A program made the position numbers and the translations under genes. From contig NZ_CP053896.1 of the NCBI RefSeq assembly GCF_013255915.1, positions 124,001 to 188,000 of the forward strand: 64,000 bases of DNA, in the 5' to 3' direction. Of the stretch, positions 16,766 through 29,777 are shown in pieces; position 1 is the first letter of the stretch; each line of letters opens with the position of its first letter. The notes under the pieces were generated by a model. That model had not been told where the DNA came from. It made no database searches and saw only the letters and a program-made list of their open reading frames with translations. The stretch is from Providencia rettgeri (GTDB lineage: Bacteria > Pseudomonadota > Gammaproteobacteria > Enterobacterales > Enterobacteriaceae).

Positions 16766-17242
16766 ATGTTGAATCTATTATTTAAAAATAGGCTTACCCC
16801 ATTAAATTTTTATTTTCTGTTGGTATTTGCCTGCATCAGCCAGCCATTATTGGCACGTAGTTTACCAATAGAACCTAAAGTGTATTTAATCGAAATTCGT
16901 CTTGATACGCAAATAATCAAGGCAGAATTAAAAGATTCAGAAATGACGCGTGATTTTATCAGTTTATTACCGCTCACTGTTGAGTTAGCAGATTATTCAT
17001 CCACAGAAAAAATCACTTATCTTCCCCGAAAACTACTAACTCATAATTCATCCAGTGGGATCGTGCCAGAGATTGGGGATATTACTTATTATGCCCCTTG
17101 GGGAAATATTGCTATTTTTTATCAACCATTTAGTTACTCCTCAGGGTTATTTAAATTAGGAAAAATAACCGATGGGCTGGAATATTTACAATTTACATCA
17201 CCAAAACAAGCTGTGATAGAGCTTATCCAAAGAAATAACTAA
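16766..17242 (+). CDS. Exported cyclophilin-like-fold protein
   Basis: A 158-residue protein with a signal peptide (FYFLLVFACISQPLLARS) and a mature domain of the cyclophilin-like fold family, recognised by LPLTVELADYSSTEKITYLP and by GDITYYAPWGNIAIFY. It should act in the periplasm. Members of this family are often neighbours of MFS and oxidoreductase genes under LysR control. The biochemical role is unknown; prolyl isomerase activity should not be assumed. It starts 1 base after the MFS stop codon and is followed by the hydrolase 15 bases on. Confidence 0.78.
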   Translation: MLNLLFKNRLTPLNFYFLLVFACISQPLLARSLPIEPKVYLIEIRLDTQIIKAELKDSEMTRDFISLLPLTVELADYSSTEKITYLPRKLLTHNSSSGIVPEIGDITYYAPWGNIAIFYQPFSYSSGLFKLGKITDGLEYLQFTSPKQAVIELIQRNN

Positions 17243-17257
17243 AAGAGGATGCATATT

Positions 17258-18364
17258 ATGAATCATGAACGTAGAGATTTATTGAAATTAACGGGGGCAA
17301 GTATTGCTGTTGCGAGTATGGCATCAATAATGACATCACCAGTATTAGCGCAACCAAATACAAATTTCAGTGAGCTATGGGATAAAACCTTTGTAAAAAG
17401 TGATAAGGTTGAACATAGAAAAGTCACATTCAAAAATCGCTATGGTTTAGCCTTAGTCGGAGATTTATATCAACCTAAACATACTAGTGGGTTATTTGCT
17501 GCGATTGTATTGAGTGGCCCATTTGGCGCAGTAAAAGAGCAGTCTTCGGGGTTGTATGCGCAAACATTAGCAGAGCGTGGTTTTATTACTCTAGCATTTG
17601 ATCCCTCTTTTACTGGAGAAAGTGAGGGTGAGCCTCGAAATGTTGCTTCTGCGGATATCAATACGGAAGACTTTAGTGCTGCTGTCGATTTTTTAGGGCT
17701 ACAGCCAAATGTGGATCGCGAGCGTATTGGTGCGTTAGCTATCTGCGGATTAAGTGGTATGGCTTTAACTGCAGCGAGTAGCGATTCACGTATTAAAGCC
17801 GTAGCAACAGCATCAATGTACGATATGTCTCGCAGTATTAGCCGCGGATACCAAGATAGTTACACCATTGAAGAACGACATAAAGTGATTGATTATCTTA
17901 GCCAGCAGCGCTGGAAAGATGCAAAAAACGGACACTATGCTTTAGGTTACCATGAGGTGCCATTCGATGAAGATGGCAATATTATCGAGGGACAACGTGT
18001 TTTACCGGAGACTCTGCCAGAGAATGCACCGCCTGTATTAGCCGCATTTTTTGATTATTACCGTACTCCTCGAGGTTTTCATCCCCGTTCAATTAATTCA
18101 ACAACCGCGTGGACAGCAACAACGCCTATATCTTTTTTTAATTTTCCTATGCATACCAATATTGAAATGATATCACCAAGACCAATTTTGCTGATTGCAG
18201 GGGAAAATGCACATTCTCGTTATTATTCTGAAGATGTGTACAAAGTAGCTTCAGATCCTAAAGAACTCTTGATTATTCCAAATGCTGATCATGTTGATTT
18301 ATATGATAATCTAAGCAAGATCCCTTTCGATAAACTGACAGTTTTCTTTCAACAGAATTTATAA
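17258..18364 (+). CDS. Tat-exported alpha/beta hydrolase
   Basis: A 368-residue hydrolase with a twin-arginine signal (HERRDLLKLTGASIAVASM) ending in VLAQ, so it is probably exported folded to the periplasm. The nucleophile-elbow region reads AICGLSG, with a Cys or Ser as candidate nucleophile as in dienelactone-hydrolase relatives, and a C-terminal ADH supplies the likely catalytic His. The ATG at 17258 has AGAGGA at ideal spacing; the ATG at 17249 lies too close to it. It closes the LysR-controlled operon. The substrate is unknown. Confidence 0.85.
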   Translation: MNHERRDLLKLTGASIAVASMASIMTSPVLAQPNTNFSELWDKTFVKSDKVEHRKVTFKNRYGLALVGDLYQPKHTSGLFAAIVLSGPFGAVKEQSSGLYAQTLAERGFITLAFDPSFTGESEGEPRNVASADINTEDFSAAVDFLGLQPNVDRERIGALAICGLSGMALTAASSDSRIKAVATASMYDMSRSISRGYQDSYTIEERHKVIDYLSQQRWKDAKNGHYALGYHEVPFDEDGNIIEGQRVLPETLPENAPPVLAAFFDYYRTPRGFHPRSINSTTAWTATTPISFFNFPMHTNIEMISPRPILLIAGENAHSRYYSEDVYKVASDPKELLIIPNADHVDLYDNLSKIPFDKLTVFFQQNL

Positions 18365-18372
18365 ATATAGTT

Positions 18373-18401
18373 GCACATTATTTTTTAGTAAAATAATGTG
18401 C
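18373..18401 (+). terminator. Strong hairpin after the hydrolase operon
   Basis: A perfect 12-bp inverted repeat (GCACATTATTTT / AAAATAATGTGC) with a 5-base loop lies 9 bases after the hydrolase stop. The following T-tract is poor, so it may terminate weakly or protect the 3' end. Confidence 0.6.
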
Positions 18402-18517
18402 TTGCTGTCAGTTACTGCGTTCCATCTGTTGGTGGCACTCAATTTCGCCAGTAGGCAACGCAAACGCTAGAACGGTATCTGATCAAAGGGTTTGTGATGG
18501 ATGATGAGCGGCTGAAT
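18401..18517 (+). pseudogene. Decayed N-terminal fragment of a rhuM-family gene
   Basis: Frame 1 from 18401 gives LAVSYCVPSVGGTQFRQ, then TAG at 18452-18454, then ATQTLERYLIKGFVMDDERLN. RhuM proteins have the same stretch as AVGYRVRS-RGTQFRQWATQ...YLIKGFVMDDERLK. The TAG replaces the Trp codon, and several Arg codons are changed. There is no start codon and similarity stops after 18517. It is a dead fragment. It lies 3.9 kb from the C-terminal rhuM fragment at 14195-14494, on the same strand. Confidence 0.8.
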
Positions 18518-18609
18518 TACTTACTAGCGGTTCATAACTATAAAAAGTGTATTAAGAACCTCCCAGTATTTGTTGGGCATTACAGATTTTAGTTGGGTTG
18601 ACTTTCTAA

Positions 18610-18972
18610 CTAGAAATCAGCCTTAGAAAAACCGGTCATAACATCCAGCTCCATTTCGCGGCCTAATGCCGTCATTGGATGGACAATGGTCAAGCCCCGC
18701 ACGGATTTTTTCAGCTTGCCAAGGTCGGCTTGTTCTTTCTTAGTGATGGGACGCTTGAACGGCATATCTACTAGTTTTTGCGCTTCTTTGCTTAGTTTTT
18801 TGTTACGCACCGCCTTCAGACGAGCGATTTCAATTTCCAGTGTCGCTTTTTCTTTCTCTAGTTCTGCGTGTTTTTCTACTTCACTCGTCAGTTGCATACT
18901 TGCCATCTGGCGACGAATAAGATCTAAACGGTCGCTAAGAAGCTTAATTTGTGCTTTTTCGATTTCTTTCAT
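18610..18972 (-). CDS. yibL: YibL, ribosome-associated protein
   Basis: A 120-residue protein that matches E. coli YibL along its whole length: [17 protein letters not shown] at the start, an Ala/Glu/Lys coiled-coil middle with [23 protein letters not shown], and the end [19 protein letters not shown]. YibL is reported to associate with ribosomes in enterobacteria. The ATG at 18972 gives the normal family length; the longer open frame to 19086 is not supported. It is a core gene next to an accessory region. Confidence 0.95.
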
Positions 18973-19310
18973 TATATTAATTAACCGTGAATAAATTTCT
19001 TGCCGGCAAGTATACACTATTCTAGATAAGGGGGGAAAAGGGATACAGGCTAATACCCATGTGAGGCTACCTTTATTGTCCATCATTCATGGAATGAAAA
19101 CAACATAACTACCTTATAAATCAATTTCCATTCAACTATTCATCATATTTCGTCTTTTGTATCCTAGTAACATCATGATTAAGTTGTTGCATTTCGGTAT
19201 CATCACTGACCTTTCTGACATATTATATTTAATTTTCTGAAAAATTATTATTTTTAGTTGATTTATCGTTGGTATATAGCGAAATATAATGAGGTATAGA
19301 TGAGATCATA

Positions 19311-19868
19311 ATGACTAAACGTAAATTTATTACACGTACAGAAGTTAATTCTTTATTGGATGCTACAAAGCAAGGTCGCTATCCTAATCGAGACTATTGC
19401 TTGTTATTAATGAGCTTTTTGCATGGATTAAGAGTTAGTGAGCTCACTCATATCACAATGTCTGATATTGATTTGGTGCAGAAAGTGATATTTATTAGGA
19501 GACTAAAAGGAGGGCTGTCTACCGTACAGCCTATAATTCCCGAAGAGTTTAATGCGATTGAAAAATGGTTAGTTGAAAGAGATTCTTGGAAAACAGCAGG
19601 GTCAGATTGTTTATTTATTTCACAAAAGGGAAGCCAAATTTCTCGTTATCAAATTTATCGCTTATTTGAGCAGTATGGCAAAATAGCAGGGCTTCCTGTA
19701 AAGCTTCATCCTCATATGCTAAGGCATGCATGCGGTTATGCTTTAGCTGATTTGGGTAGGGACACTCGATTAATCCAAGACTATTTAGGGCATCGAAATA
19801 TCGCCCATACTGTAATTTATACTGCTAGTAATGAAAAAAGATTTAGTGGTATTTGGTCGAATCAATAA
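19311..19868 (+). CDS. mrpI: Fimbrial tyrosine recombinase (MrpI/FimB family)
   Basis: A 185-residue site-specific recombinase of the short FimB/FimE/MrpI type, which inverts a promoter segment to switch fimbriae on and off. The catalytic residues are visible: Arg in FLHGLRVSELTHI, HMLRH with His and Arg, GH in YLGHRNIAHT and the nucleophile Tyr in HTVIYTAS. It is located directly upstream of a 312-bp segment bounded by inverted repeats and then a fimbrial operon in the same orientation, as mrpI is in Proteus mirabilis. It is not an island integrase. Confidence 0.95.
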   Translation: MTKRKFITRTEVNSLLDATKQGRYPNRDYCLLLMSFLHGLRVSELTHITMSDIDLVQKVIFIRRLKGGLSTVQPIIPEEFNAIEKWLVERDSWKTAGSDCLFISQKGSQISRYQIYRLFEQYGKIAGLPVKLHPHMLRHACGYALADLGRDTRLIQDYLGHRNIAHTVIYTASNEKRFSGIWSNQ

Positions 19869-19931
19869 GTAATTTAATGAGTTGTGTCAATATAAAGCTA
19901 GCACTAAACATAATAATATGAACTAAACACC

Positions 19932-19983
19932 AAGAATACCTCAGTTATTTAGGTAATTGATTTTATAAAACTGAGGTATTCTT
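19932..19983 (+). terminator. Inverted repeat downstream of the recombinase gene
   Basis: A perfect 15-bp inverted repeat (19932-19946 and 19969-19983, outer part AAGAATACCTCAG / CTGAGGTATTCTT) with a 22-base loop. There is no strong T-tract. It may end mrpI transcription or stop leftward transcripts from the invertible promoter. Confidence 0.45.
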
Positions 19984-20410
19984 ATGCATATTAAGGGTAG
20001 TAATTATTTTTAAAGCCATAAACAACATACTCAAGTAATTTATTTTCCAGCCTTTAAAAATAAGATTAGTTTATAATTTTATTTATTCTTTTTTTTTGAA
20101 TCATCATAATTTAATTACTCCAATTGCGAGTATAGGTGGTTCGCTTTCTCAGTTAACTAATTATTATCATATTTCAATCATTTTTTTTACAGTAATAGTC
20201 TATTTTTGACTATCAAATAAAGTTATTCTGTGAAAGGTCACCATATAAGTGAAATCATTTAGATGATAAGTTCATATTTTTGGTTTTTGTGAGTTAAAAA
20301 CATCTTATTGATGATTTAAAACACATTAATTTAATATACAATAAAAAAATTAATTAATTATCAATAATAATCAATCGGATAAAATAAAATATCTATAAAA
20401 ATCAATTCGT

Positions 20411-20722
20411 AACGCAACATAATAAATCAAAATGTTCAAATTACCTAATAAGTATAATTATCAGACTAACTAAAATCAAATAGCATAAAACTCTGTTGCG
20501 GCAATGCATTTTAGAGGTAATTATCAATTAATGTAAAAATTTGTCATTAACAACAAAAAGTTATCTTTCATGATTTTTTTTGTAATAAAACTCGCCAGTT
20601 AAATCATCTGACTTTTCTAGTTTAAGGTATAAATTAAAGATTTTAATTCTGACGATTCTTATATATAAAACAATTTACCTAAAACTCATTTAACGCAACA
20701 TTTTGATTTATTTTGTTGCGTT
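20411..20722. promoter_or_regulatory. Predicted invertible promoter element of the fimbrial operon
   Basis: Two 26-bp inverted repeats, 20411-20436 and 20697-20722, agree at 25 of 26 positions (core of the left copy AATAAATCAAAATGTT). They enclose 260 bp between a MrpI-type recombinase and the fimbrial genes. The size and place match the fim/mrp switch type. A strong promoter (20451-20479) lies inside near the left repeat and points left. A hairpin at the right repeat exists only in this orientation. The assembled state is therefore predicted to be OFF. Confidence 0.85.
20451..20479 (-). promoter_or_regulatory. Sigma-70 promoter inside the invertible element, pointing away from the operon
   Basis: On the minus strand: -35 TTGATT (20474-20479), 17-bp spacer, -10 TATACT (20451-20456). 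It is the best promoter found in the element. Inversion would place it next to the right repeat, reading toward the MrpJ-like gene and the major subunit gene. Confidence 0.75.
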
Positions 20723-20728
20723 TTTTTT
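20692..20728 (+). terminator. Orientation-dependent intrinsic terminator at the right switch boundary
   Basis: Perfect 9-bp stem AACGCAACA (20692-20700) / TGTTGCGTT (20714-20722), 13-base loop, then six more T residues. Five bases of the left arm lie inside the invertible segment and four lie in the repeat, so inversion would break this stem and rebuild it at the left repeat facing the other way. Confidence 0.65.
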
Positions 20729-20809
20729 GCATTTCAAAAAATAAATTGTTCACTTTATGAGTGGTTCTGATTGTTTTGCCTCATTACACAAGGCTTTAAT
20801 TGGTGAGAT

Positions 20810-21199
20810 ATGAAAAGTAATAAATTAAAGACCAGTATAGATAGCTTTCAGAAAATACTAACTGAACAAATTGGCATGGAATTATCGCATCTTAGAAAAG
20901 AGAAAGGACTTAGTGGTAGTGATCTAGCTAAAAAATTAAAGATATCACAACAACAAATATCTCGTTATGAAAGAGGAATATGTAGCATTAACTGTGGAAT
21001 GCTATTTTCAATTTTATTTTATCTAGAAATTAGCCCGAGTGCATTTTTTGAAAGTGTATCATTGAAAATAAATGAAAAAAATCCTAGTGCTAATTCATTT
21101 ATTCATAATAGTGAATGTTTATCCGATGAAAAGGATAACTACCATTATATTTTTAATCGACAAACAGAAATTATTTTAAATTCTTTATACAGCAAATAG
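20810..21199 (+). CDS. MrpJ-like XRE-family regulator
   Basis: A 129-residue protein with a Cro/CI-type helix-turn-helix (LRKEKGLSGSDLAKKLKISQ, then QQISRYERG) at about residues 30-60 and a short C-terminal tail. It resembles MrpJ-type fimbria-linked regulators of Proteeae, which repress motility when fimbriae are made. Here the gene is the first one downstream of the invertible element, not the last of the operon as mrpJ is in P. mirabilis, so it should switch together with the fimbriae. The motility role is inferred from the family. Confidence 0.82.
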   Translation: MKSNKLKTSIDSFQKILTEQIGMELSHLRKEKGLSGSDLAKKLKISQQQISRYERGICSINCGMLFSILFYLEISPSAFFESVSLKINEKNPSANSFIHNSECLSDEKDNYHYIFNRQTEIILNSLYSK

Positions 21200-21281
21200 T
21201 TATTTTAAAAATAATAAATTCTAACTATGCCCTACATCATGTTGGGTAATCATCACGTTGTTATATATAAATGAGGTTCAA

Positions 21282-21845
21282 ATGAAAAAAGTATTTTTAG
21301 CCGCACTAGTTTCTGCCGCTATTGCATCTCCAGCACTTGCTGATCAAGGGCATGGTAAAGTCACATTTAAAGGTGAAATCATCGATGCACCTTGCTCAAT
21401 TAGTTCAGATTCTATTGACCAAACAGTATGGTTAGGCCAAATCGCTAACTCTGTTTTAGCGAATGGCGGTACTTCTAGCGCGAAGCAATTCAATATTGAA
21501 TTGGAAGACTGTGTATTCCCGAAAGATACAAATGATAAAGTGTACAACGATAAAGTGAGTATCACATTCTCTGGTTCTAGCGCTGCTTTCAATTCTAAAT
21601 TACTCGGTGTAACAGGCTTAGATGCAACAGACCCAACTATTGCTGGCAACGTGGGTATTCAATTAACGGATACTAATGGCGCAGCGTTAGATATGGGAGT
21701 TGCAACAGCTCAAGAACATCAATTACAAGCGGGTGATAATACATTACGTTATAGCGCTTATGTACAAGGTGCAAACGTTGCGGTTGATAAAATTCCATTA
21801 GGTAAATTCGAAGGCGTAACTAACTTTACCTTAACTTATAACTAA
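21282..21845 (+). CDS. mrpA: Major fimbrial subunit (MrpA-like)
   Basis: A 187-residue pilin of the type 1/MR/P group, exported and assembled by the chaperone-usher pathway. The signal peptide MKKVFLAALVSAAIASPALA is clear. The mature protein has the paired cysteines of pilins (APCSIS and LEDCVF) and ends in FTLTYN with the penultimate Tyr used for chaperone binding. GAGG stands 6 nt before the ATG at 21282. It is the first structural gene after the switch and the MrpJ-like regulator. Confidence 0.94.
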   Translation: MKKVFLAALVSAAIASPALADQGHGKVTFKGEIIDAPCSISSDSIDQTVWLGQIANSVLANGGTSSAKQFNIELEDCVFPKDTNDKVYNDKVSITFSGSSAAFNSKLLGVTGLDATDPTIAGNVGIQLTDTNGAALDMGVATAQEHQLQAGDNTLRYSAYVQGANVAVDKIPLGKFEGVTNFTLTYN

Positions 21846-21911
21846 TTGATTAGTTTAAGAGGAATACCTTTGTGTTCCTCTATTAATCACCAAATTAAGT
21901 CAGAGGTTAAA

Positions 21912-22457
21912 GTGAAAGGATTTATCTATTTGCGAAGCAAAGTATCTTCCCTATTTCTTCTAACATTATTTCTTTCGCCACAAATGGCTGCATCATCTCA
22001 TGGATGGGGTAAAGTCACGATGAATGGCGAAATAGTCGATACTGCCTGCGCAATAGATATTGGGTCTAGGGATCAGACCATTAATATGGGGGTACTTCCA
22101 ACAAGCTATATTCGTGAAGTTGGGAAAGGCCCCATAAAAGAATTCAATATTAAGCTCATTGATTGTCGTTGGGAAAAATATTCGAAAGATAATAACGAAT
22201 GGAATTCACTCGAAGTCACTTTTGATGGTCCATCAGAAGGTGATTTTTTCACACTCTCGGGTGAAGCAAAAGGAGTGCAATTGGCATTGTATGATATATC
22301 GGGATATTCCATTACACCAGGAAAGCCATTACCTGCATTAGGAATTACGCCAGGGACAATGATCCTTAAATATCAAATGCAATTAGTCACCAATTATCAT
22401 CCTGTTAAAGCGGGTAATTACCAAACCTTATTAAGGTTCAAGGTCGATTATTATTAA
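21912..22457 (+). CDS. Minor fimbrial subunit (MrpB-like)
   Basis: A 181-residue pilin-like protein with a GTG start at 21912 (AGAGG five bases upstream) and a signal peptide ending QMAASS. The mature part starts like the major subunit (GWGKVTMNGEIVDTACAID), has the second Cys in LIDCRW and ends in FKVDYY. Its place between major subunit and usher matches mrpB, a probable assembly terminator or anchor. The upstream in-frame ATG at 21846 would remove the signal-peptide character and is not used. Confidence 0.87.
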   Translation: MKGFIYLRSKVSSLFLLTLFLSPQMAASSHGWGKVTMNGEIVDTACAIDIGSRDQTINMGVLPTSYIREVGKGPIKEFNIKLIDCRWEKYSKDNNEWNSLEVTFDGPSEGDFFTLSGEAKGVQLALYDISGYSITPGKPLPALGITPGTMILKYQMQLVTNYHPVKAGNYQTLLRFKVDYY

Positions 22458-22486
22458 TTCTAAGAAATTATATTGGTGTTTTAGGG

Positions 22487-25018
22487 ATGTTTTTTATGTT
22501 TTTTAAACAACACAAAATAAATATAATAACGACAACGATAATGATTACATTTGGGTCATTATCCGCTCAGTTATACGCTGCCGATACCATACAATTTAAT
22601 ACGGCATTATTTGATTTAGAAGACAAAAAAAACATTGATGTTAAGCAATTCTCACGTGCAGGCTATATTATGCCTGGTATTTATCCCCTCAAAGTACAAG
22701 TAAATAAAGAAACTTTACCCGAGCAACGTTTTTCATTCTATGCGCCAGAAAACGACCCTGAAGATAGCCTCGTTTGTATCACACCAGAACAAGTCCAGCA
22801 GCTAGGACTAACAGCCAGTTCGTTGAAGCAAATTACGTGGTGGCATAATAATGAGTGTCTTGATTTACGCAGTTTGCCCGGCTTTCAAGCACGGGGGGAT
22901 TTATCTGACTCAACGTTGTATCTGAGTATACCTCAAGCCTACCTTGAATATAGAACAGCTAACTGGGATCCGCCTTCTCTGTGGGATGAAGGAATTTCAG
23001 GGGTTATTTTAGACTACAATATAAACGCAAGAGCGAATAAGCCTCATGATAATAATAGCAACTATAATGTGACAGCAAATGGTGTCGCAGGTGTGAACCT
23101 TGGTGCATGGCGCTTTAGGGGAGATTGGCAGGGGCGTGCTCAACGAGAAACTGGCTCGGATAGTAAAAATGAGCATGACTTTCAATGGAGCCGACTATAC
23201 GCCTATAAAGCGTTAACCAGCATTAAAGCGAAATTGACCTTGGGCGAGGACTATTTTAACACTGATTTATTCGATAGTTTTCGATTTACAGGTGTTGGCT
23301 TACGCTCTGATATCTTAATGTTACCACCTAATTTACGTGGGTATGCACCTGAAATAACGGGTGTTGCGACGACAAATGCGACGGTGATTGTTAGCCAACA
23401 AGGGCGGATTATTTATCAAGAACAAGTCGCTGCGGGTCCTTTCCGTATCCAAAATTTAAGTGATGCGACGACGGGAAAACTGGATGTCCGAATCGAAGAG
23501 CAGGATGGTTCAGTTCAAGAATATCAGGTTGAAACAGCCAATATCCCTTATTTAACTCGACCAGGTAGTATTCGATATAAATTAGCGATGGGTCGCCCAA
23601 CGGATATGGATCATCATGTTAATGGAGATACATTTGCGAGTGGTGAAATGTCGTGGGGTGTCACTAATGGTTGGTCATTGCTTGCAGGCTCATTAAATAG
23701 TCAAGACTATAATGCATTCAACGTGGGTGTCGGTCGTGACTTATTGGCATTTGGTGCCTTATCTTTCGATATTACGCATTCTATTGCAAATATTCCTAAT
23801 GATAAAAAACTCACAGGTAATTCTTATCGAATAAACTATTCAAAACGTTTTGATGACTATGATAGCCAAGTACAGTTCGCAGGTTACCGATTCTCAGAAC
23901 GCAGTTTTATGACTGTAACCGATTTTTTAACGGCTAAAGACTCAGGTGAGCGTCAAGGTAGTAATAAAGAAATGTATGTGATTTCTTTAAATAAAAACTT
24001 TAGGGAATCGAGAATTACAGCTTATTTAAACTACTCGCACCAAACCTATTGGGATAAGCCAGAAAGTAATCGCTACAATTTAATGGTGACAAAAACCTTA
24101 GATTGGGGAAGCCTGAAGAATATTAATATTTCGTTATCGGCCTATCGCAATAAATATAACGAAACAAATGATGATGGCCTGTATATTTCAGCTTCAATGC
24201 CTTGGGGAAATGGTGCAAATATTGGCTATTCATTACAAGCAACACGGGATGATACCGTTAATCGAGCAACCTATTATGACAAATTGTCAGATAGAACCAA
24301 TTATCAAGTCAGTGCAGGCTCGACCAACAAAGGTGGAACCGCAAGTACCTATATTACCCATTATGGTGATAATACTAAGTTAACTGCGAATGCCAGCTAT
24401 ATTCATAATAATTACACGTCATTTGGGGTAGGGGCACAAGGCGGATTTACCATGACTTTAAATGGTGCGGATGCTCATCGAGTTTCAAATATTGGCGGAA
24501 CTCGTTTGCTGATCGACACTGATGGTGTGGCTAAAATTCCCGTATCAGACCGAGGGATCCCTATTGCATCAAATGCATTTGGTAAAGTGATTGTCCCTGA
24601 CTTAAATAGCTACTACCGCAGTAAAGTTAAAGTCGATTTAAATGCATTACCGAATAATGCCGAAGTAACGGATTCTATTGTTCAAGCGACATTAACAGAA
24701 GGCGCGATTGGCTATCGCAAATTTAATGTACTGTCTGGTGAAAAGATGATGCTTTCAATGCGTATGTCTGACGGTTCTGCACCGCCATTTGGTGCCCAGA
24801 TCACGAATCTGAAAGGAAAAGAAACGGGAATAGTTACTGATAATGGATATGCCTATGTTAGTGGTATCAACCCAAATGAAGTCATGATTATTCATTGGGG
24901 TGGGGAAGCACAATGTGAAATTAATTTTCCTGAAAACTTAGAAACAATTAACCAAGGATTATTCATTCCTTGTAAACCATTATCAAATAAACGTAATGAA
25001 GCAGATAATAATCTGTAA
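22487..25018 (+). CDS. mrpC: Fimbrial outer-membrane usher (MrpC/FimD-like)
   Basis: An 843-residue usher that forms the outer-membrane pore and assembles the fimbria. A signal peptide (ends LSAQLYA) is followed by the periplasmic N-domain FNTALFDLEDKKNIDVKQF, the SLWDEGISGVILDYNINA region that begins the barrel, the plug and barrel (about 140-660) and C-terminal domains with PPFGAQI. The length is normal for the family. ATGs at 22487 and 22496 are both possible starts. The gene is intact. Confidence 0.96.
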   Translation: MFFMFFKQHKINIITTTIMITFGSLSAQLYAADTIQFNTALFDLEDKKNIDVKQFSRAGYIMPGIYPLKVQVNKETLPEQRFSFYAPENDPEDSLVCITPEQVQQLGLTASSLKQITWWHNNECLDLRSLPGFQARGDLSDSTLYLSIPQAYLEYRTANWDPPSLWDEGISGVILDYNINARANKPHDNNSNYNVTANGVAGVNLGAWRFRGDWQGRAQRETGSDSKNEHDFQWSRLYAYKALTSIKAKLTLGEDYFNTDLFDSFRFTGVGLRSDILMLPPNLRGYAPEITGVATTNATVIVSQQGRIIYQEQVAAGPFRIQNLSDATTGKLDVRIEEQDGSVQEYQVETANIPYLTRPGSIRYKLAMGRPTDMDHHVNGDTFASGEMSWGVTNGWSLLAGSLNSQDYNAFNVGVGRDLLAFGALSFDITHSIANIPNDKKLTGNSYRINYSKRFDDYDSQVQFAGYRFSERSFMTVTDFLTAKDSGERQGSNKEMYVISLNKNFRESRITAYLNYSHQTYWDKPESNRYNLMVTKTLDWGSLKNINISLSAYRNKYNETNDDGLYISASMPWGNGANIGYSLQATRDDTVNRATYYDKLSDRTNYQVSAGSTNKGGTASTYITHYGDNTKLTANASYIHNNYTSFGVGAQGGFTMTLNGADAHRVSNIGGTRLLIDTDGVAKIPVSDRGIPIASNAFGKVIVPDLNSYYRSKVKVDLNALPNNAEVTDSIVQATLTEGAIGYRKFNVLSGEKMMLSMRMSDGSAPPFGAQITNLKGKETGIVTDNGYAYVSGINPNEVMIIHWGGEAQCEINFPENLETINQGLFIPCKPLSNKRNEADNNL

Positions 25019-25031
25019 ATGAGTGATTGCT

Positions 25032-25781
25032 ATGAAAAAATTAACTAATTTATATATCAGTACTATTTTATTAAGCAGTTTAGTTAGCGGAAGCGCATTC
25101 TCGGCAATTGCTTTAGATAGAACCCGAGTTATTTTTAATGGTGATCAAAAAAGCGTTTCAATTACTATTACTAATAAAAATAACCAGCTACCTTATTTGG
25201 CCCAAGGGTGGGTTGAAAATATTCAAGGGGTAAAAATTACTTCACCGTTTGCTGTATTACCTCCGGTGCAGAGAGTTGAACCCGAAAAATCAAGCCAAGT
25301 CCGTATTGAGGCGCTTCCTGAAATTAGTCAGTTACCTCAGGATAGAGAAAGTGTTTATTACTTTAATTTAAGGGAGATCCCGCCAAAAAGTGATAAACCG
25401 AATGTTTTGCAATTAGCGTTACAGAGCAAAATTAAATTATTTTATCGTCCTAAAAGTATCATGCTAAGCGAAACAGAAATGCTGAATAACCCTTGGCAAG
25501 AAAAAACACAGCTTATTAAGCAAGGTGACCAATATATCATTAAAAACCCAACTCCCTTTTATATCACGATTATTGGTGCGGCTGAGCGAAAAAATTCACC
25601 CGTAAATCAGAATTTTAAGGCAGTTATGGTTGCACCATTTAGTGAAGAAAAATTAGGAGTTCCAAGTTCTACTGTGGGGGCAAATCCGGTATTGACCTAT
25701 ATAAATGACTATGGTGGCCGGCCAAAACTTCAATTTAAATGTCAAGCAAATACATGTCAGGTTGTTCCTGAAAGTAAATAG
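25032..25781 (+). CDS. mrpD: Periplasmic fimbrial chaperone (MrpD-like)
   Basis: A 249-residue PapD-type chaperone that carries subunits to the usher in the periplasm. The signal peptide ends SGSAFSA, followed by the first strand ALDRTRVIFNG. Chaperone marks are NLREIPPK, the edge strand LQLALQSKIKLFYRP and NPTPFYITI. It begins 14 bases after the usher stop. An in-frame GTG at 25023 is a weaker alternative start. Confidence 0.95.
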   Translation: MKKLTNLYISTILLSSLVSGSAFSAIALDRTRVIFNGDQKSVSITITNKNNQLPYLAQGWVENIQGVKITSPFAVLPPVQRVEPEKSSQVRIEALPEISQLPQDRESVYYFNLREIPPKSDKPNVLQLALQSKIKLFYRPKSIMLSETEMLNNPWQEKTQLIKQGDQYIIKNPTPFYITIIGAAERKNSPVNQNFKAVMVAPFSEEKLGVPSSTVGANPVLTYINDYGGRPKLQFKCQANTCQVVPESK

Positions 25782-25789
25782 AGAGGAAA

Positions 25790-26407
25790 ATGATGATTAA
25801 TCAAAAAAGCTTTTCCTTACTCTTTGGATTATCTCTCATATTTCATTCAGCTGTGATATATGCGGCATCAAATAATGCCTTTTATAACACAACAGGTAAT
25901 TGGGATGTTGAAGGTGCAAATGGTAAAATTTTCGTTTATGGCTCATTAACGGAGAGTGCATGCCATTTATCGATGGATTCTGCATTTCAATCCGTTGATT
26001 TAGGAAATATTGAAACTGCATCATTAAAAACAATTGGCGCCCAAGGCCACAAGACGCCGGTAAACATCGAGTTATTGGATTGTATCGAAACCCCAACGGT
26101 TTTGAGAAACAATAAATCCGGTAATGTCACATGGAGTCTTTCTCAGCCAGGTATGAAAATTAGGTTTATCACGCCAGTTGTCCCTTTTAGGCCGAACATA
26201 GCGAGAGTTGAAGGTGTGAATGGGCTTGGATTGCAGATAACTAATCCTAAAGGAAAAGAAATTGCTTTTGGTGAGTATAGTGAACCTGAGCTTATTTCTA
26301 CGGGGCAAAATATTTTAACTTATTATGTAGCTCCCGTAAGAATTGCAGAGAAGTTACAGGCTGGAGCTTATCGAAGTGTTATTTCTTTTCAAATAACGTA
26401 TGAATAA
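25790..26407 (+). CDS. Minor fimbrial subunit (MrpE-like)
   Basis: A 205-residue secreted pilin-like protein with a signal peptide (LLFGLSLIFHSAVIYAAS), pilin cysteines in TESACHLS and LLDCIE, and the terminal strand YRSVISFQITYE. GAGAGGAAA precedes the ATG at 25790. By position it corresponds to mrpE, a minor or tip-fibrillum subunit. The exact place in the fimbria is inferred from gene order. Confidence 0.87.
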   Translation: MMINQKSFSLLFGLSLIFHSAVIYAASNNAFYNTTGNWDVEGANGKIFVYGSLTESACHLSMDSAFQSVDLGNIETASLKTIGAQGHKTPVNIELLDCIETPTVLRNNKSGNVTWSLSQPGMKIRFITPVVPFRPNIARVEGVNGLGLQITNPKGKEIAFGEYSEPELISTGQNILTYYVAPVRIAEKLQAGAYRSVISFQITYE

Positions 26408-26446
26408 TCTTAATAGATTGTCTGATATAGCATTGAAGGTATTTAT

Positions 26447-27013
26447 ATGAATAACTTAAATTTCAATTTTTATAAATTTAAAAAAATAATACTCTCCATG
26501 CTATTAAGTTTGTTATTTTTTTCGTTACAGAGTCATGCAAAAAATGGTCAAATTGGTGAAATTAAGATACGAGGCCAACTTGTCGCTGAAGCTTGTACAG
26601 TAAGGCCCGGTGATGAAAATATCATTGTGGACTTTGGTACTATCGTTAATAAGTACCTCTATATTAATCAAAAAACGCCAATTGAAAATTTTAATATTCA
26701 TTTAGATGACTGTGATAATAGTATCTTTAGAACGGTGACCGTTAAGTTTACAGGAAACGAAAATATCAATTTACCAGGCCTTCTTGCATTAGATTCTGGC
26801 AGCATGGCTTCGGGCATCGGAATTGAAATCTTAGAATATAGCGGTAAAAAAATTCCCATTAATAGTACGACGCCTGCATACAATTTAGAGAATGGTACAA
26901 ATATTTTAAGTTTTAATGCGAATGTGCAAGGGGAACCCGATGCAATAAAAAATAAAAGTATTGCGTTTGGCCATTTTACTGCAACCGCTATTTTTAGTTT
27001 AATTTATGATTAA
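26447..27013 (+). CDS. Minor fimbrial subunit (MrpF-like)
   Basis: A 188-residue pilin-like protein with a signal peptide ending LFFSLQSHAKN, Cys in AEACTVRPGD and LDDCDN and the end FTATAIFSLIYD. It matches the short subunits near the tip genes in MR/P-type operons. Its reading frame touches the following adhesin frame, and the genes are probably translationally coupled. Confidence 0.88.
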   Translation: MNNLNFNFYKFKKIILSMLLSLLFFSLQSHAKNGQIGEIKIRGQLVAEACTVRPGDENIIVDFGTIVNKYLYINQKTPIENFNIHLDDCDNSIFRTVTVKFTGNENINLPGLLALDSGSMASGIGIEILEYSGKKIPINSTTPAYNLENGTNILSFNANVQGEPDAIKNKSIAFGHFTATAIFSLIYD

Positions 27014-27026
27014 GGTATCAGTAACA

Positions 27027-28028
27027 ATGAAGATATTAATATTACTTCTCTCAACCTTATTATTTTCCCCAACTATTTTTGCGTTCCAGTGTAAAACTAA
27101 TGGAGGGCAGGAAGTTGGTGGGGGAACACAAAGTATTTATGATGTTCCTCTCGATAATGATATTTTTGCTGTACCAAATCGTATAAATGAATTTGCGGAT
27201 GTGAGTGATTTTATGACCTGCCGTAATGAAGCCCCCAGTGCTTATGTTGATTATTTAAATGTGACTGGTGCTGACCTTGGTCCAACATTTAAGAATAACC
27301 CAGAATTAAAAGCGGGTGTGGTCGTGCGTGGCGCTTATTATTTAGCACCATTTAGTGGTAAAGAAATTCAAGTATTTCGTTTAACTACAGCTAGTGAACC
27401 TTTACAAATTAAATTATATTTGCAGGTAAATGTTAAACCAACGCCATCAGTCTTGGTAAGAAAAGGCGATTTGCTGATGACATTAGATCTCCATAAATAT
27501 GCGACATTTGTAAATAGTAATCAGCATATTGACCATGCTTATTTTAAATGGAATTTCTATGCAGGTAATGACGTAGTTGTTGGAACGGGTACGTGTGATA
27601 TCAATGATAACCAAATCATCATTGTTGATTTTGAAACAGTAAATGCATCGGGTATTTCAACGGTGGGAAGTGCAAGCCGTTTTCAACGTAACGCAGAAAT
27701 CACTTATAGTTGTGAAGATAATAACCTGACGGCGCCAATAAAGATGATTATTAGCGGAGAAACTTCGACTTTCTCATCTGATGCTTTACTTGTTAGAACA
27801 GGAGATATTGGTAGTCAAGGTTCTATTATGTCTGGATTAGGTGTTGAGGTTTATCATCAAGGGCAAAGAATTTCCCCTATGAATGGGCATTTCGATTCAA
27901 AAATAGAAAATGGGCATGGTAGAGATACATTAATGTTCACGCTAGTTAAAAAACCTAATTTATCGCCAAATGAATTGATAGAAGGCCAGTTTAGTTCAGC
28001 AGCTACCATTATTATGTCCACTCCGTAG
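27027..28028 (+). CDS. Two-domain fimbrial tip adhesin
   Basis: A 333-residue secreted protein (signal MKILILLLSTLLFSPTIFA) with an N-terminal lectin-like domain of about 170 residues (FQCKTNGGQ, DFMTCRNEAPSAYVDYLN) and a C-terminal pilin-like domain starting about KWNFYAG with Cys in TGTCDIND and ITYSCED. This is the FimH-type arrangement. An upstream ATG at 27006 overlaps the previous gene; 27027 gives the better signal peptide. It takes the mrpH position at the operon end. Receptor specificity is unknown. Confidence 0.88.
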   Translation: MKILILLLSTLLFSPTIFAFQCKTNGGQEVGGGTQSIYDVPLDNDIFAVPNRINEFADVSDFMTCRNEAPSAYVDYLNVTGADLGPTFKNNPELKAGVVVRGAYYLAPFSGKEIQVFRLTTASEPLQIKLYLQVNVKPTPSVLVRKGDLLMTLDLHKYATFVNSNQHIDHAYFKWNFYAGNDVVVGTGTCDINDNQIIIVDFETVNASGISTVGSASRFQRNAEITYSCEDNNLTAPIKMIISGETSTFSSDALLVRTGDIGSQGSIMSGLGVEVYHQGQRISPMNGHFDSKIENGHGRDTLMFTLVKKPNLSPNELIEGQFSSAATIIMSTP

Positions 28029-28324
28029 CTATTGAAATAGAGAGGTTTTTATATGGATGAAAGCCTCCATTTTTTTCTCGTCAGCTCTCTATGGTTACTG
28101 AGCAAATCGTGTTTATAACAAAATCACAATATATCGATGATTTTTTATAAACATATTTTGGATTAGACAAAATAAGTTAAACACACCAAATTTTGAATTA
28201 TCATCGGTATCATCTTTTCTTAAATAACATCACATAATTTCTACATCTATAAAGCTCAAAGCCTATCAGGTCTCAGTAGCTACAGGTATAATCACATAAT
28301 TATCCGATAGATTTAGAGGCGAAG
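28029..28324. other. Intergenic region after the fimbrial operon
   Basis: About 300 bases between the adhesin and yaiL. A short hairpin with a T-tract lies near the left end and an AT-rich yaiL leader near the right. No gene seen. Confidence 0.5.
28053..28076 (+). terminator. Probable terminator of the fimbrial operon
   Basis: ATGGA (28053-28057) pairs with TCCAT (28066-28070) across an 8-base loop and is followed by six more T residues. The stem is short, so confidence is moderate. Confidence 0.5.
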
Positions 28325-28864
28325 ATGGCGAAACTCACCTTACAAGAGCAAATGCTAAAAGCAGGATTAGTTACTAGTAAGAAAATGGCAAAAGTGCAAA
28401 GAACGGCTAAAAAATCACGTGTTCAGGCGCGTGAAGCAAGGGAAGCCGTAGAAGAAAATAAAAAAGCACAGCTTGAGCGTGACAAACAATTGAGTGAGCA
28501 GCATAAACAAATGGTGCAATCCAAAGAGTTTAAAGCGCAAGTTAAACAACTTATTGAAATGAATAAAGTTGATATTTCAAAGGGAGATATTAGTTTTAAT
28601 TTCACAGATAACAACGTTATCAAGCAAGTTGTTGTAGACAAAATAACACAAACGCAACTGATCAGTGGGCGTCTGGCGATTGCACGTTTAACGATTGATA
28701 ACAGTGATGTTAACGAGTATGTGATTATTCCAGCAAGCGTAGCGGATAAAATAACGCAAAGAGATGCGGATAGTATCGTACTCAACAATGCACTTAGCCA
28801 AGAAGAACAGGATGAAGATGACCCGTATGCGGACTTTAAGATCCCTGACGACCTGATGTGGTAA
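28325..28864 (+). CDS. yaiL: YaiL, DUF2058 protein
   Basis: A 179-residue protein that matches E. coli YaiL almost throughout: KLTLQEQMLKAGLVTSKK, a basic helical middle (KKSRVQAREAREAVEENKK), ISFNFTDNNVIK and the acidic end DEDDPYADFKIPDDLMW. The family is annotated as nucleoid or polynucleotide-associated, but its exact role is not settled. A core gene; it converges with the pseudouridine synthase gene. Confidence 0.95.
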   Translation: MAKLTLQEQMLKAGLVTSKKMAKVQRTAKKSRVQAREAREAVEENKKAQLERDKQLSEQHKQMVQSKEFKAQVKQLIEMNKVDISKGDISFNFTDNNVIKQVVVDKITQTQLISGRLAIARLTIDNSDVNEYVIIPASVADKITQRDADSIVLNNALSQEEQDEDDPYADFKIPDDLMW

Positions 28865-28896
28865 TACTCGTCAAATTTTAAGTCGTAGCTTTGGCG

Positions 28897-29595
28897 TTAA
28901 AACGGGCTGGCGCTAAACATTTTAAAGTTCTTCTGACTCGCAGGGTGAACAAAATGCAATTCGCTAGCGTGCAAAAGTAAACGTGGAGTCTGCTCAGTCC
29001 CTTGTAATAATCGCCCACCATATAGATCGCAACCTAAGATTGGGTGACCTAATTTTTGGCAGTGGATGCGTAACTGGTGGGTGCGCCCTGTCTCAGGGGT
29101 TAATTGGACACGGGTTACAGGTAACGATATCCCATTTTCTACAGGGTGATACAGACGCTCTATTACTTGATAGTGGGAGCGGGCAGGTTTGCCATTCACC
29201 TCGCAAAGCGACATGCGGGGAAACTGTGCAGGGTCTTTTGCTATTGCCGCATCAATGACCCCCTCATCATTAGCTAAGTGGCCACAAAGTAGAGCTTGGT
29301 ATATTTTAATGATGGAGCGTTGGCTAAATTGCTGGCTTAGAGCTGCATTGATGGCTTTATTGCGAGCAACCACCATTAACCCAGATGTGCCAAAATCGAG
29401 ACGGTGAACAAGAGTACAGTCTGGGAATATTTGTACTAATCGGTGATGGACGGAGTCTAAGTTTTGTGGGTTTTTTCCAGAAAGGCTGAGTAGGCCACTT
29501 GGCTTATTAATAAGAACTAGATGCTCATCCTGATAGATAATTTCTATCTCATCGTGACAGGGCGGGGCAATAAAGGTGTCGATGATTTCAGTCAT
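28897..29595 (-). CDS. RluA-family pseudouridine synthase
   Basis: A 232-residue RNA-modifying enzyme. The catalytic Asp lies in HRLDFGTSGLMVVA, the standard motif II, and the substrate-fold motif TPETGRTHQLRIHC with LGHPILGC is present. It resembles RluA/TruC relatives but the motif HRLDFGTSG and overall pattern differ from canonical RluA (HRLDMATSG), so the RNA target is not assigned. The ATG at 29595 has GGAAAGG upstream. An extra 13 residues from 29634 are not supported. Confidence 0.9.
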   Translation of the reverse strand: MTEIIDTFIAPPCHDEIEIIYQDEHLVLINKPSGLLSLSGKNPQNLDSVHHRLVQIFPDCTLVHRLDFGTSGLMVVARNKAINAALSQQFSQRSIIKIYQALLCGHLANDEGVIDAAIAKDPAQFPRMSLCEVNGKPARSHYQVIERLYHPVENGISLPVTRVQLTPETGRTHQLRIHCQKLGHPILGCDLYGGRLLQGTEQTPRLLLHASELHFVHPASQKNFKMFSASPF

Positions 29596-29777
29596 TAGCC
29601 TTTCCAGCAAAAAATGGTGGTTGATAATAACCAATTTTTAGTAGGTAGGCGAACGCTGTCACTTGCATCACGTAAATTTATCACTCAGACTAAAAGCAAA
29701 GCCGTAGTCTGCACACGCATTGTGCTCTATACTGCGTGTTGTAAAAACTGAGTCAATAAAAGATTAATTAGGCGGTA

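What the first reader, a model, noticed from the sequence alone, without database searches (positions are those of the whole stretch)
20411..20722. Predicted phase-variable fimbrial switch: a 312-bp invertible element
Seen: 26-bp inverted repeats (25 of 26 positions match) 260 bp apart, between a MrpI/FimB-type recombinase and a full MR/P-like operon. Known: MrpI and FimB invert such elements in Proteus and E. coli. Inference: this is the on/off switch for this Providencia-type fimbria.
Basis: partly seen in the sequence, partly recalled or inferred. Interest (0 to 1): 0.8.

Follow-up and report, generated by a model that had tools for sequence, protein, structure and literature searches.

The report
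Invertible on/off switch for fimbriae
Beside a set of fimbria (adhesion hair) genes lies a short DNA segment that a neighbouring enzyme probably flips to turn the genes on or off; it is a new variant of known bacterial switches, and a related genome carries several copies of the same kind of segment.

Summary
Observation confirmed: 26-nt arms (25/26) at 20411-20436 and 20697-20722, 260 bp apart; score 23 versus at most 15 in 200 shuffles. Beside it lie a tyrosine DNA invertase gene and a chaperone-usher operon.
The element is intact beside a close recombinase relative in 8 of the 10 genus genomes that have one; 9 readable copies all lie the same way. A promoter-like pair TTGATT-17-TATACT points away from the operon in 8 of 8 copies and, as TTGATT-16/17-TAAAYT, in 7 of 7 related elements before other regulator-first operons, so the deposited state reads OFF. 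Inversion of this element was never seen; it was in a second switch of the genus and in Photorhabdus.
New: the OFF junction can form a hairpin plus T8 that inversion removes, a possible conditional terminator; but related elements keep the dyad either way. One relative, G019, holds seven such arm pairs, none beside a close MrpI gene: one invertase may set many loci.
'MR/P-like' is partly right: the tip is FimH-like, the recombinase clade sister to MrpI.

The parts
19311..19868 (+). Tyrosine-type DNA invertase gene (185 aa), sister clade to MrpI
   Evidence: PF00589 E 2e-43; NF007370 and NF007371 above cut-off; R41, H135, R138, H161, Y170 present, assigned by position against the FimE residues quoted in PMC9820224, not by an alignment; tree
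20411..20436 (.). Left arm (IRL); its inner half-site lacks the outer extension
20411..20722 (.). Predicted invertible element, 312 bp, 24% G+C
20451..20479 (-). Promoter-like pair TTGATT-17-TATACT pointing at the invertase gene; would face the operon after inversion
   Evidence: listed; both hexamers invariant in 8 of 8 copies; same place in 7 of 7 regulator-linked related elements
20692..20728 (+). Hairpin (9-bp stem, 13-nt loop) over the right arm, then T8 (20721-20728, the first two T pair in the stem); possible conditional terminator
   Evidence: -10.6 kcal/mol, 0 of 200 shuffles as low
20697..20722 (.). Right arm (IRR)
20810..21199 (+). Helix-turn-helix regulator gene, first gene after the switch
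   Evidence: HTH_3 E 2.7e-9; P. mirabilis relatives 24-51%
21282..21845 (+). Major pilin-like gene (ORF listed from 21258; start at 21282 chosen by eye)
   Evidence: PF00419
21912..22457 (+). Second fimbrial subunit-like gene (start chosen by eye; ORF listed from 21846)
   Evidence: no Pfam hit; LpfA model E 1.6e-11, below cut-off
22487..25018 (+). Outer membrane usher gene
   Evidence: PF00577; NF011812 above cut-off
25035..25781 (+). Periplasmic chaperone gene (start chosen by eye; ORF listed from 25023)
   Evidence: PF00345, PF02753
25790..26407 (+). Minor fimbrial subunit gene
   Evidence: PF00419
26447..27013 (+). Minor fimbrial subunit gene
   Evidence: PF00419
27006..28028 (+). Tip adhesin gene, FimH-like
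   Evidence: PF09160 E 5e-11; FimH structures, best E 1.3e-14

Best explanation
A promoter-inversion phase switch. The invertase encoded at 19311-19868 recombines the two arms and flips 20411-20722. In the deposited orientation the conserved promoter-like pair near the left arm points at the invertase gene, so the operon, which starts with a regulator gene, is OFF. After inversion the same promoter would lie just inside the right arm and read into the operon (ON). A possible extra step: in OFF the right junction forms a hairpin with a U-tract that would stop read-through from upstream, and flipping replaces one half of the stem. Shown from sequence: repeats, recombinase family, conservation, promoter-like boxes, orientation-dependent pairing. 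Inferred: that the segment inverts, that this recombinase does it, that the promoter is active, that anything terminates. I put the switch itself at 0.85 and the terminator step at about 0.35; the latter was lowered from 0.45.
For: Repeat far above chance. Invertase family and catalytic residues. Full-length element in 8 of 24 genus genomes, all 8 among the 10 with a recombinase of at least 85% identity, element length 312-313 bp in all 8. Arms related to those of divergent mrpI elements in Proteus, Morganella and Photorhabdus. Both promoter hexamers invariant in 8 of 8 while 148 of 261 inner columns are invariant; the box pair recurs at the same distance from the arm in 7 of 7 related elements beside regulator genes and in 0 of 2 others, against 0.8% of random AT-rich 75-mers. 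Related switches do invert: a second switch of the genus in G011 against four others, and 3 of 13 Photorhabdus elements.
Against: The opposite orientation of this element was seen in 0 of 9 readable copies. The window holds no more promoter-like sites than shuffles do (11 against a mean of 14.3). No read or transcript data. The plasmid, IMG/VR and genome searches gave no inverted copy.
Confidence: 0.83

Rival explanations
1. A plain promoter-inversion switch: the dyad at the right junction is only a pair of recombinase half-sites and stops no transcription; the T-run is AT-rich background.
For: Related elements in G019, G013 and G001 keep nearly the same pairing after in-silico inversion (8-9 pairs against 7-9 in the 7 beside regulator genes) and have at most 3 T after the 31-mer, so the dyad looks like a property of the recombination site. 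A T-run of at least 5 follows the stem in only 5 of 8 Providencia copies; 65 of 934 8-mers of this intergenic stretch hold at least 6 T. The loop of 13 nt is long; the terminator scan (loop limit 8) found none.
Against: In the window's group the inner half at the left arm is degenerate in 8 of 8 copies, so the dyad is orientation-dependent there (-10.2 or -9.7 against about -0.2 kcal/mol); pairing covaries across 13 distinct OFF sites (88.0% of cells paired) and not across 10 inverted ones (56.7%); Morganella elements combine it with a T-run in 3 of 4.
Confidence: 0.5
2. A locked or decayed element that no longer inverts: arms and promoter are remnants, always OFF in this group.
For: One orientation in 9 of 9 readable copies; a single mismatch in the arms; the P. 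alcalifaciens copy is interrupted and its operon incomplete.
Against: Arms are kept while the interior falls to 72.5% identity; recombinase open and 94-100% identical in the 8 genomes; P. mirabilis strains H110 and H63 also lie one way, in the form I read as OFF, and their mrp switch is known to flip (PMC9820224, passages).
Confidence: 0.1
3. Not a recombination element: a chance or structural repeat, for example a terminator pair between two transcription units.
For: The right arm does sit in a hairpin followed by a T-run.
Against: Arms of 26 nt at 260 bp beside an invertase gene, related to mrp arms, spacing kept within 1 bp in 8 genomes.
Confidence: 0.03

Closest known systems
MR/P (mrp) switch of Proteus mirabilis: MrpI and a 252-bp invertible element
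   Same: Related recombinase (62% identity), arms with a related 21-nt core, an invertible promoter in front of a chaperone-usher operon with a related usher (51%).
   Different: There mrpI is divergent from the operon, the regulator mrpJ is the last gene, the tip is MrpH (PMC7444556, passages); here the recombinase gene is codirectional, a regulator gene is first and the tip is FimH-like. The recombinase clades are sisters, and other Providencia have a separate MrpI-clade gene.
fim switch (fimS, FimB/FimE) of Escherichia coli
   Same: Recombinase gene upstream and codirectional, promoter in an element of about 312-314 bp, FimH-like adhesin.
   Different: fimS has 9-bp repeats and two recombinases (PMC9820224, passages); here one recombinase gene and 26-bp arms of the mrp type.
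cwpV switch of Clostridioides difficile
   Same: Inversion is proposed to build or remove an intrinsic terminator at the repeat junction (9-bp stem, four G-C pairs, poly-U in OFF; PMC2784873, passages).
   Different: There the promoter is outside the element and the terminator alone is the switch; other gene context.
Fimbrial invertible segment of Providencia stuartii (PMC5903667, section 13)
   Same: Same genus, near a fimbrial locus.
   Different: 844 bp with 14-bp imperfect repeats and a recombinase gene inside.
mad switch of Photorhabdus luminescens
   Same: Short promoter-bearing fimbrial element (named in PMC5903667); Photorhabdus elements of the mrp type were compared here.
   Different: Divergent recombinase gene; I did not test whether the fetched loci are the mad locus itself.

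Membership tests
Fimbrial promoter-inversion switches with a tyrosine recombinase (fim/mrp kind) | Inverted repeats of mrp or fim type flanking a short segment upstream of a fimbrial operon | tested here: met
Fimbrial promoter-inversion switches with a tyrosine recombinase (fim/mrp kind) | FimB/FimE/MrpI-type recombinase with R-H-R-Y residues | tested here: met
Fimbrial promoter-inversion switches with a tyrosine recombinase (fim/mrp kind) | Promoter inside the segment | tested here: inconclusive
   Promoter-like boxes conserved; activity not testable here
Fimbrial promoter-inversion switches with a tyrosine recombinase (fim/mrp kind) | Both orientations occur | tested here: inconclusive
   0 of 9 readable copies inverted; inversions seen only in other switches
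MR/P (mrp) proper | Recombinase gene divergent from the operon | tested here: not met
MR/P (mrp) proper | Recombinase in the MrpI clade | tested here: not met
   Sister clade, both sides supported (99/95 and 97/84)
MR/P (mrp) proper | Tip adhesin of the MrpH type | tested here: not met
   FimH-like by Pfam and PDB sequence search; not compared directly with MrpH
Conditional intrinsic terminator (cwpV kind) | Stem and U-tract in one orientation only | tested here: met
   -10.6 against -2.6 kcal/mol; loop 13 nt, longer than the 3-10 nt in the criteria quoted in PMC2784873
Conditional intrinsic terminator (cwpV kind) | Transcription actually stops there | not testable with these tools
   Needs a reporter or RNA 3' ends

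The most novel reading that the evidence does not exclude
The window's switch belongs to a dispersed family of switches that one invertase can set in trans. G019, a genome of the same genus, carries seven inverted arm pairs of this site family; five are directly followed by a regulator gene of the same kind and two lie at non-fimbrial loci, and the only close MrpI relative found stands alone more than 100 kb away. A single recombinase would then set many loci at once. In the window's own branch the site has in addition become a double lock: the flip both turns the promoter away and builds an intrinsic terminator from the recombination site.
Probability: 0.4. Interest if true: 0.65.

Novelty: new variant of a known kind. 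Interest (0 to 1): 0.48.

Why it matters
Two open points become testable. First, how an OFF operon is protected from read-through when the recombinase gene lies just upstream in the same direction: a terminator made from the recombination site would answer it and carry a principle proposed for one C. difficile switch over to fimbrial switches. Second, whether one MrpI-type invertase can set the phase of several operons: the arms found far from any close recombinase gene in G019, G013 and G001 suggest it. If neither holds, this is an ordinary new member of a well-known kind of switch.

Tried and rejected
Search for the inverted form of this element: 24 genus genomes, IMG/VR by arm pattern (0 stretches), plasmid records (no record covers 80% of the query; the best, pR33-1, matches at 87% only from about the first pilin gene on and has other genes upstream). 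None gave it.

'MR/P proper' was rejected on gene order, tree and tip adhesin. That promoter-like sites in general mean anything here was rejected: their number does not exceed shuffles, so only the conserved pair was kept. A first look only downstream of the recombinase missed the Proteus, Photorhabdus and Morganella elements; looking on both sides found them. In one search, 29 of 79 loci have a repeat of score 17 or more; of the 21 loci of the Xenorhabdus clade only L087 (20) and L103 (15) reach 15. Four of the 29 outside the groups named (L087, L125, L127, L136) were scored but not used further.

The general claim that only the OFF junction keeps the dyad was rejected for the wider family: 7 related elements keep it either way. 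I lowered the terminator odds for that reason.

Rows left out: identical rows, L085 (an N in the site), and the P. mirabilis sites (the OFF stem pairs 8 of 9, then TCTAAC). Three Photorhabdus rows were entered in the inferred OFF form. Proteus L076 goes the other way (OFF -2.0, inverted -3.9). In alignment A1 the pair of columns 4 and 28 is unpaired in 7 of 13 rows.

Paper searches. In one search only 20 of 40 papers were listed. No listed title describes a terminator in an MrpI-type switch; I read passages of PMC2784873, PMC9820224, PMC7444556 and PMC5903667 and section 13 of the last, nothing else.

Full report
OBSERVATION. The inverted repeat is real and as described: 20411-20436 and 20697-20722, 26 nt, 25 of 26 paired, 260 nt apart, ranked first in the region. 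It scores 23 in my scan; the best of 200 shuffled 2.2-kb stretches scores 15. The 21-nt core occurs without mismatch only at these two places in the genome.

SETTING. The gene at 19311-19868 is a tyrosine-type DNA invertase. Downstream lie a helix-turn-helix regulator, a pilin, a second subunit, an usher, a chaperone, two minor subunits and a FimH-like adhesin. G060, a genome of the same species, lacks the module: window 17200-19049 and 28193-29700 match there at 98-99% with 81 bp between, so about 9.1 kb is accessory.

CONSERVATION. 24 genus genomes were searched. 17 of 24 have a recombinase match at E 1e-40 or better and 10 have one of at least 85% identity. The full-length element is found in 8 of 24, all among those 10. 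Of the other two, P. alcalifaciens BIGb0506 has the left arm and the adjoining 23 bp or so and then an insert that I take for an IS by eye (not searched), with the regulator, pilin, usher and chaperone not found at that locus; P. burhodogranariea has 333 N beginning where the left arm would start (such runs can be assembly gaps or masking). The 9 readable copies lie the same way relative to the recombinase gene.

SITE TYPE. Elements with related arms lie upstream of divergent mrpI-type genes in Proteus, Morganella and Photorhabdus. The core AACAAAATAAATCAAAATGTT agrees with the Proteus L070 core at 18 of 21 positions. In a tree of 85 recombinases the window's clade (7 rows, all of this genus) is sister to 52 rows with the Proteus, Morganella, Photorhabdus and Xenorhabdus genes and a second set of Providencia genes. 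So this is a parallel system, not MrpI itself.

ORIENTATION. The pair TTGATT-17-TATACT on the minus strand near the left arm is invariant in 8 of 8 copies. In the 7 related elements beside regulator genes a pair TTGATT-16/17-TAAAYT lies at the same distance from the operon-distal arm, pointing the same way; 0.8% of random AT-rich 75-mers hold such a pair. It faces away from the operon, so I call the deposited state OFF. The plain promoter scan shows no excess over shuffles.

CONTROLS FOR INVERSION. The comparison can detect inversion. In a second switch of the genus (recombinase at G000:C1:4136704-4137252; arms 26 of 26, 289 bp) the copy of G011 (L059) is inverted relative to L060, L054, L020 and L058; of 13 Photorhabdus elements 3 are inverted relative to the reference; 5 Proteus and 4 Morganella elements lie one way, two of the latter judged on about 100 bp. 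So one orientation in 9 copies neither proves nor excludes switching.

CONDITIONAL HAIRPIN. Five inner bases (20692-20696) extend the right junction to a 9-bp stem with a 13-nt loop and T8. It folds at -10.6 kcal/mol (z -3.65, 0 of 200 shuffles as low); the junction inverted in silico folds at -2.6 (176 of 200 as low). In 8 of 8 copies the OFF junction pairs at 9 (7 copies) or 8 (one) positions and the inverted one at 5-6. At least 5 contiguous T follow the 31-mer in 5 of 8 Providencia, 3 of 4 Morganella, 0 of 5 Proteus and 0 of 13 Photorhabdus elements. Over 13 distinct OFF sites of four genera 88.0% of cells pair and the covariation score exceeds all 500 shuffles; over 10 distinct inverted sites 56.7% pair and 425 of 500 shuffles score as high. 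These shuffles ignore relatedness. Chance pairing of the four extension bases is 0.0008 at local composition. Against it: the 7 related elements described next keep 7-9 pairs after inversion and have no long T-run, so the dyad as such is probably a recombination-site feature, and only the window's branch and Morganella combine its one-sidedness with a T-run. The precedent is cwpV of C. difficile (PMC2784873, passages).

A DISPERSED FAMILY. In G013 an arm pair (39 nt, 95%, 257 bp apart) stands before a regulator, pilin and usher, about 575 kb from the window-type recombinase of that genome (positions). In G001 a pair stands before a regulator and an operon with a 74% pilin and a 66% usher, 26 kb from the nearest close recombinase. 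G019 has 16 distinct places matching the site pattern (control pattern 1 forward and 1 reverse; the other 23 genomes have at most 7 strand matches each): seven inverted pairs and two single places. Five pairs are beside a regulator gene and two (595 kb and 685 kb) are not; the latter lie near a permease, cupin and sugar-kinase-like gene, and a decarboxylase. The only close recombinase of G019 (65%, 183 aa) stands alone at 1.784 Mb, with no arms in 11 kb around it. A more distant integrase-like frame of 217 aa lies about 1.6 kb from one element, so other recombinases are not excluded. Interiors of some G019 elements are related and all lie the same way over their long matches.

LIMITS. The genus name rests on named relatives, nearest P. 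rettgeri RB151 with 97% recombinase identity.

Noticed in passing
L161-L166 (G019:C1 541, 595, 685, 1199, 1238, 1913 and 1917 kb): Seven inverted arm pairs of the same site family in one genome, five beside a regulator gene and two at non-fimbrial loci, with the only close MrpI relative standing alone elsewhere.
   Followed up: partly
L168 (G013:C1:3851767-3852091) and L170 (G001:C1:3803505-3803827): Arm pairs of this type before regulator-first fimbrial operons without a close recombinase gene beside them.
   Followed up: partly
L060 (G000:C1:4136704-4137252 and the 380 bp after it): A second switch in the window's genome: 50% identical recombinase, arms 26 of 26, 289 bp apart; the copy in G011 (L059) is inverted.
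   Followed up: partly
window 19050-28192: About 9.1 kb with invertase, switch and operon is absent from G060 of the same species, where 81 bp lie between the flanks.
   Followed up: partly
window 27006-28028: The tip adhesin is FimH-like, so a mannose-type ligand is possible although the usher is closest to MR/P.
   Followed up: partly
window 19931-19983: A long hairpin (-21.4 kcal/mol for 19929-19990) just after the invertase gene, perhaps its terminator.
   Followed up: no
L010/L064 and L078: N runs of 333 and 321 bases sit at the switch in P. burhodogranariea and at the mrp switch in P. mirabilis ATCC 29906; mixed orientations could break assemblies there, but masking is not excluded.
   Followed up: no
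L065/L009 (P. alcalifaciens BIGb0506): The element is interrupted by an insert and the regulator, pilin, usher and chaperone genes are not found at this locus.
   Followed up: no
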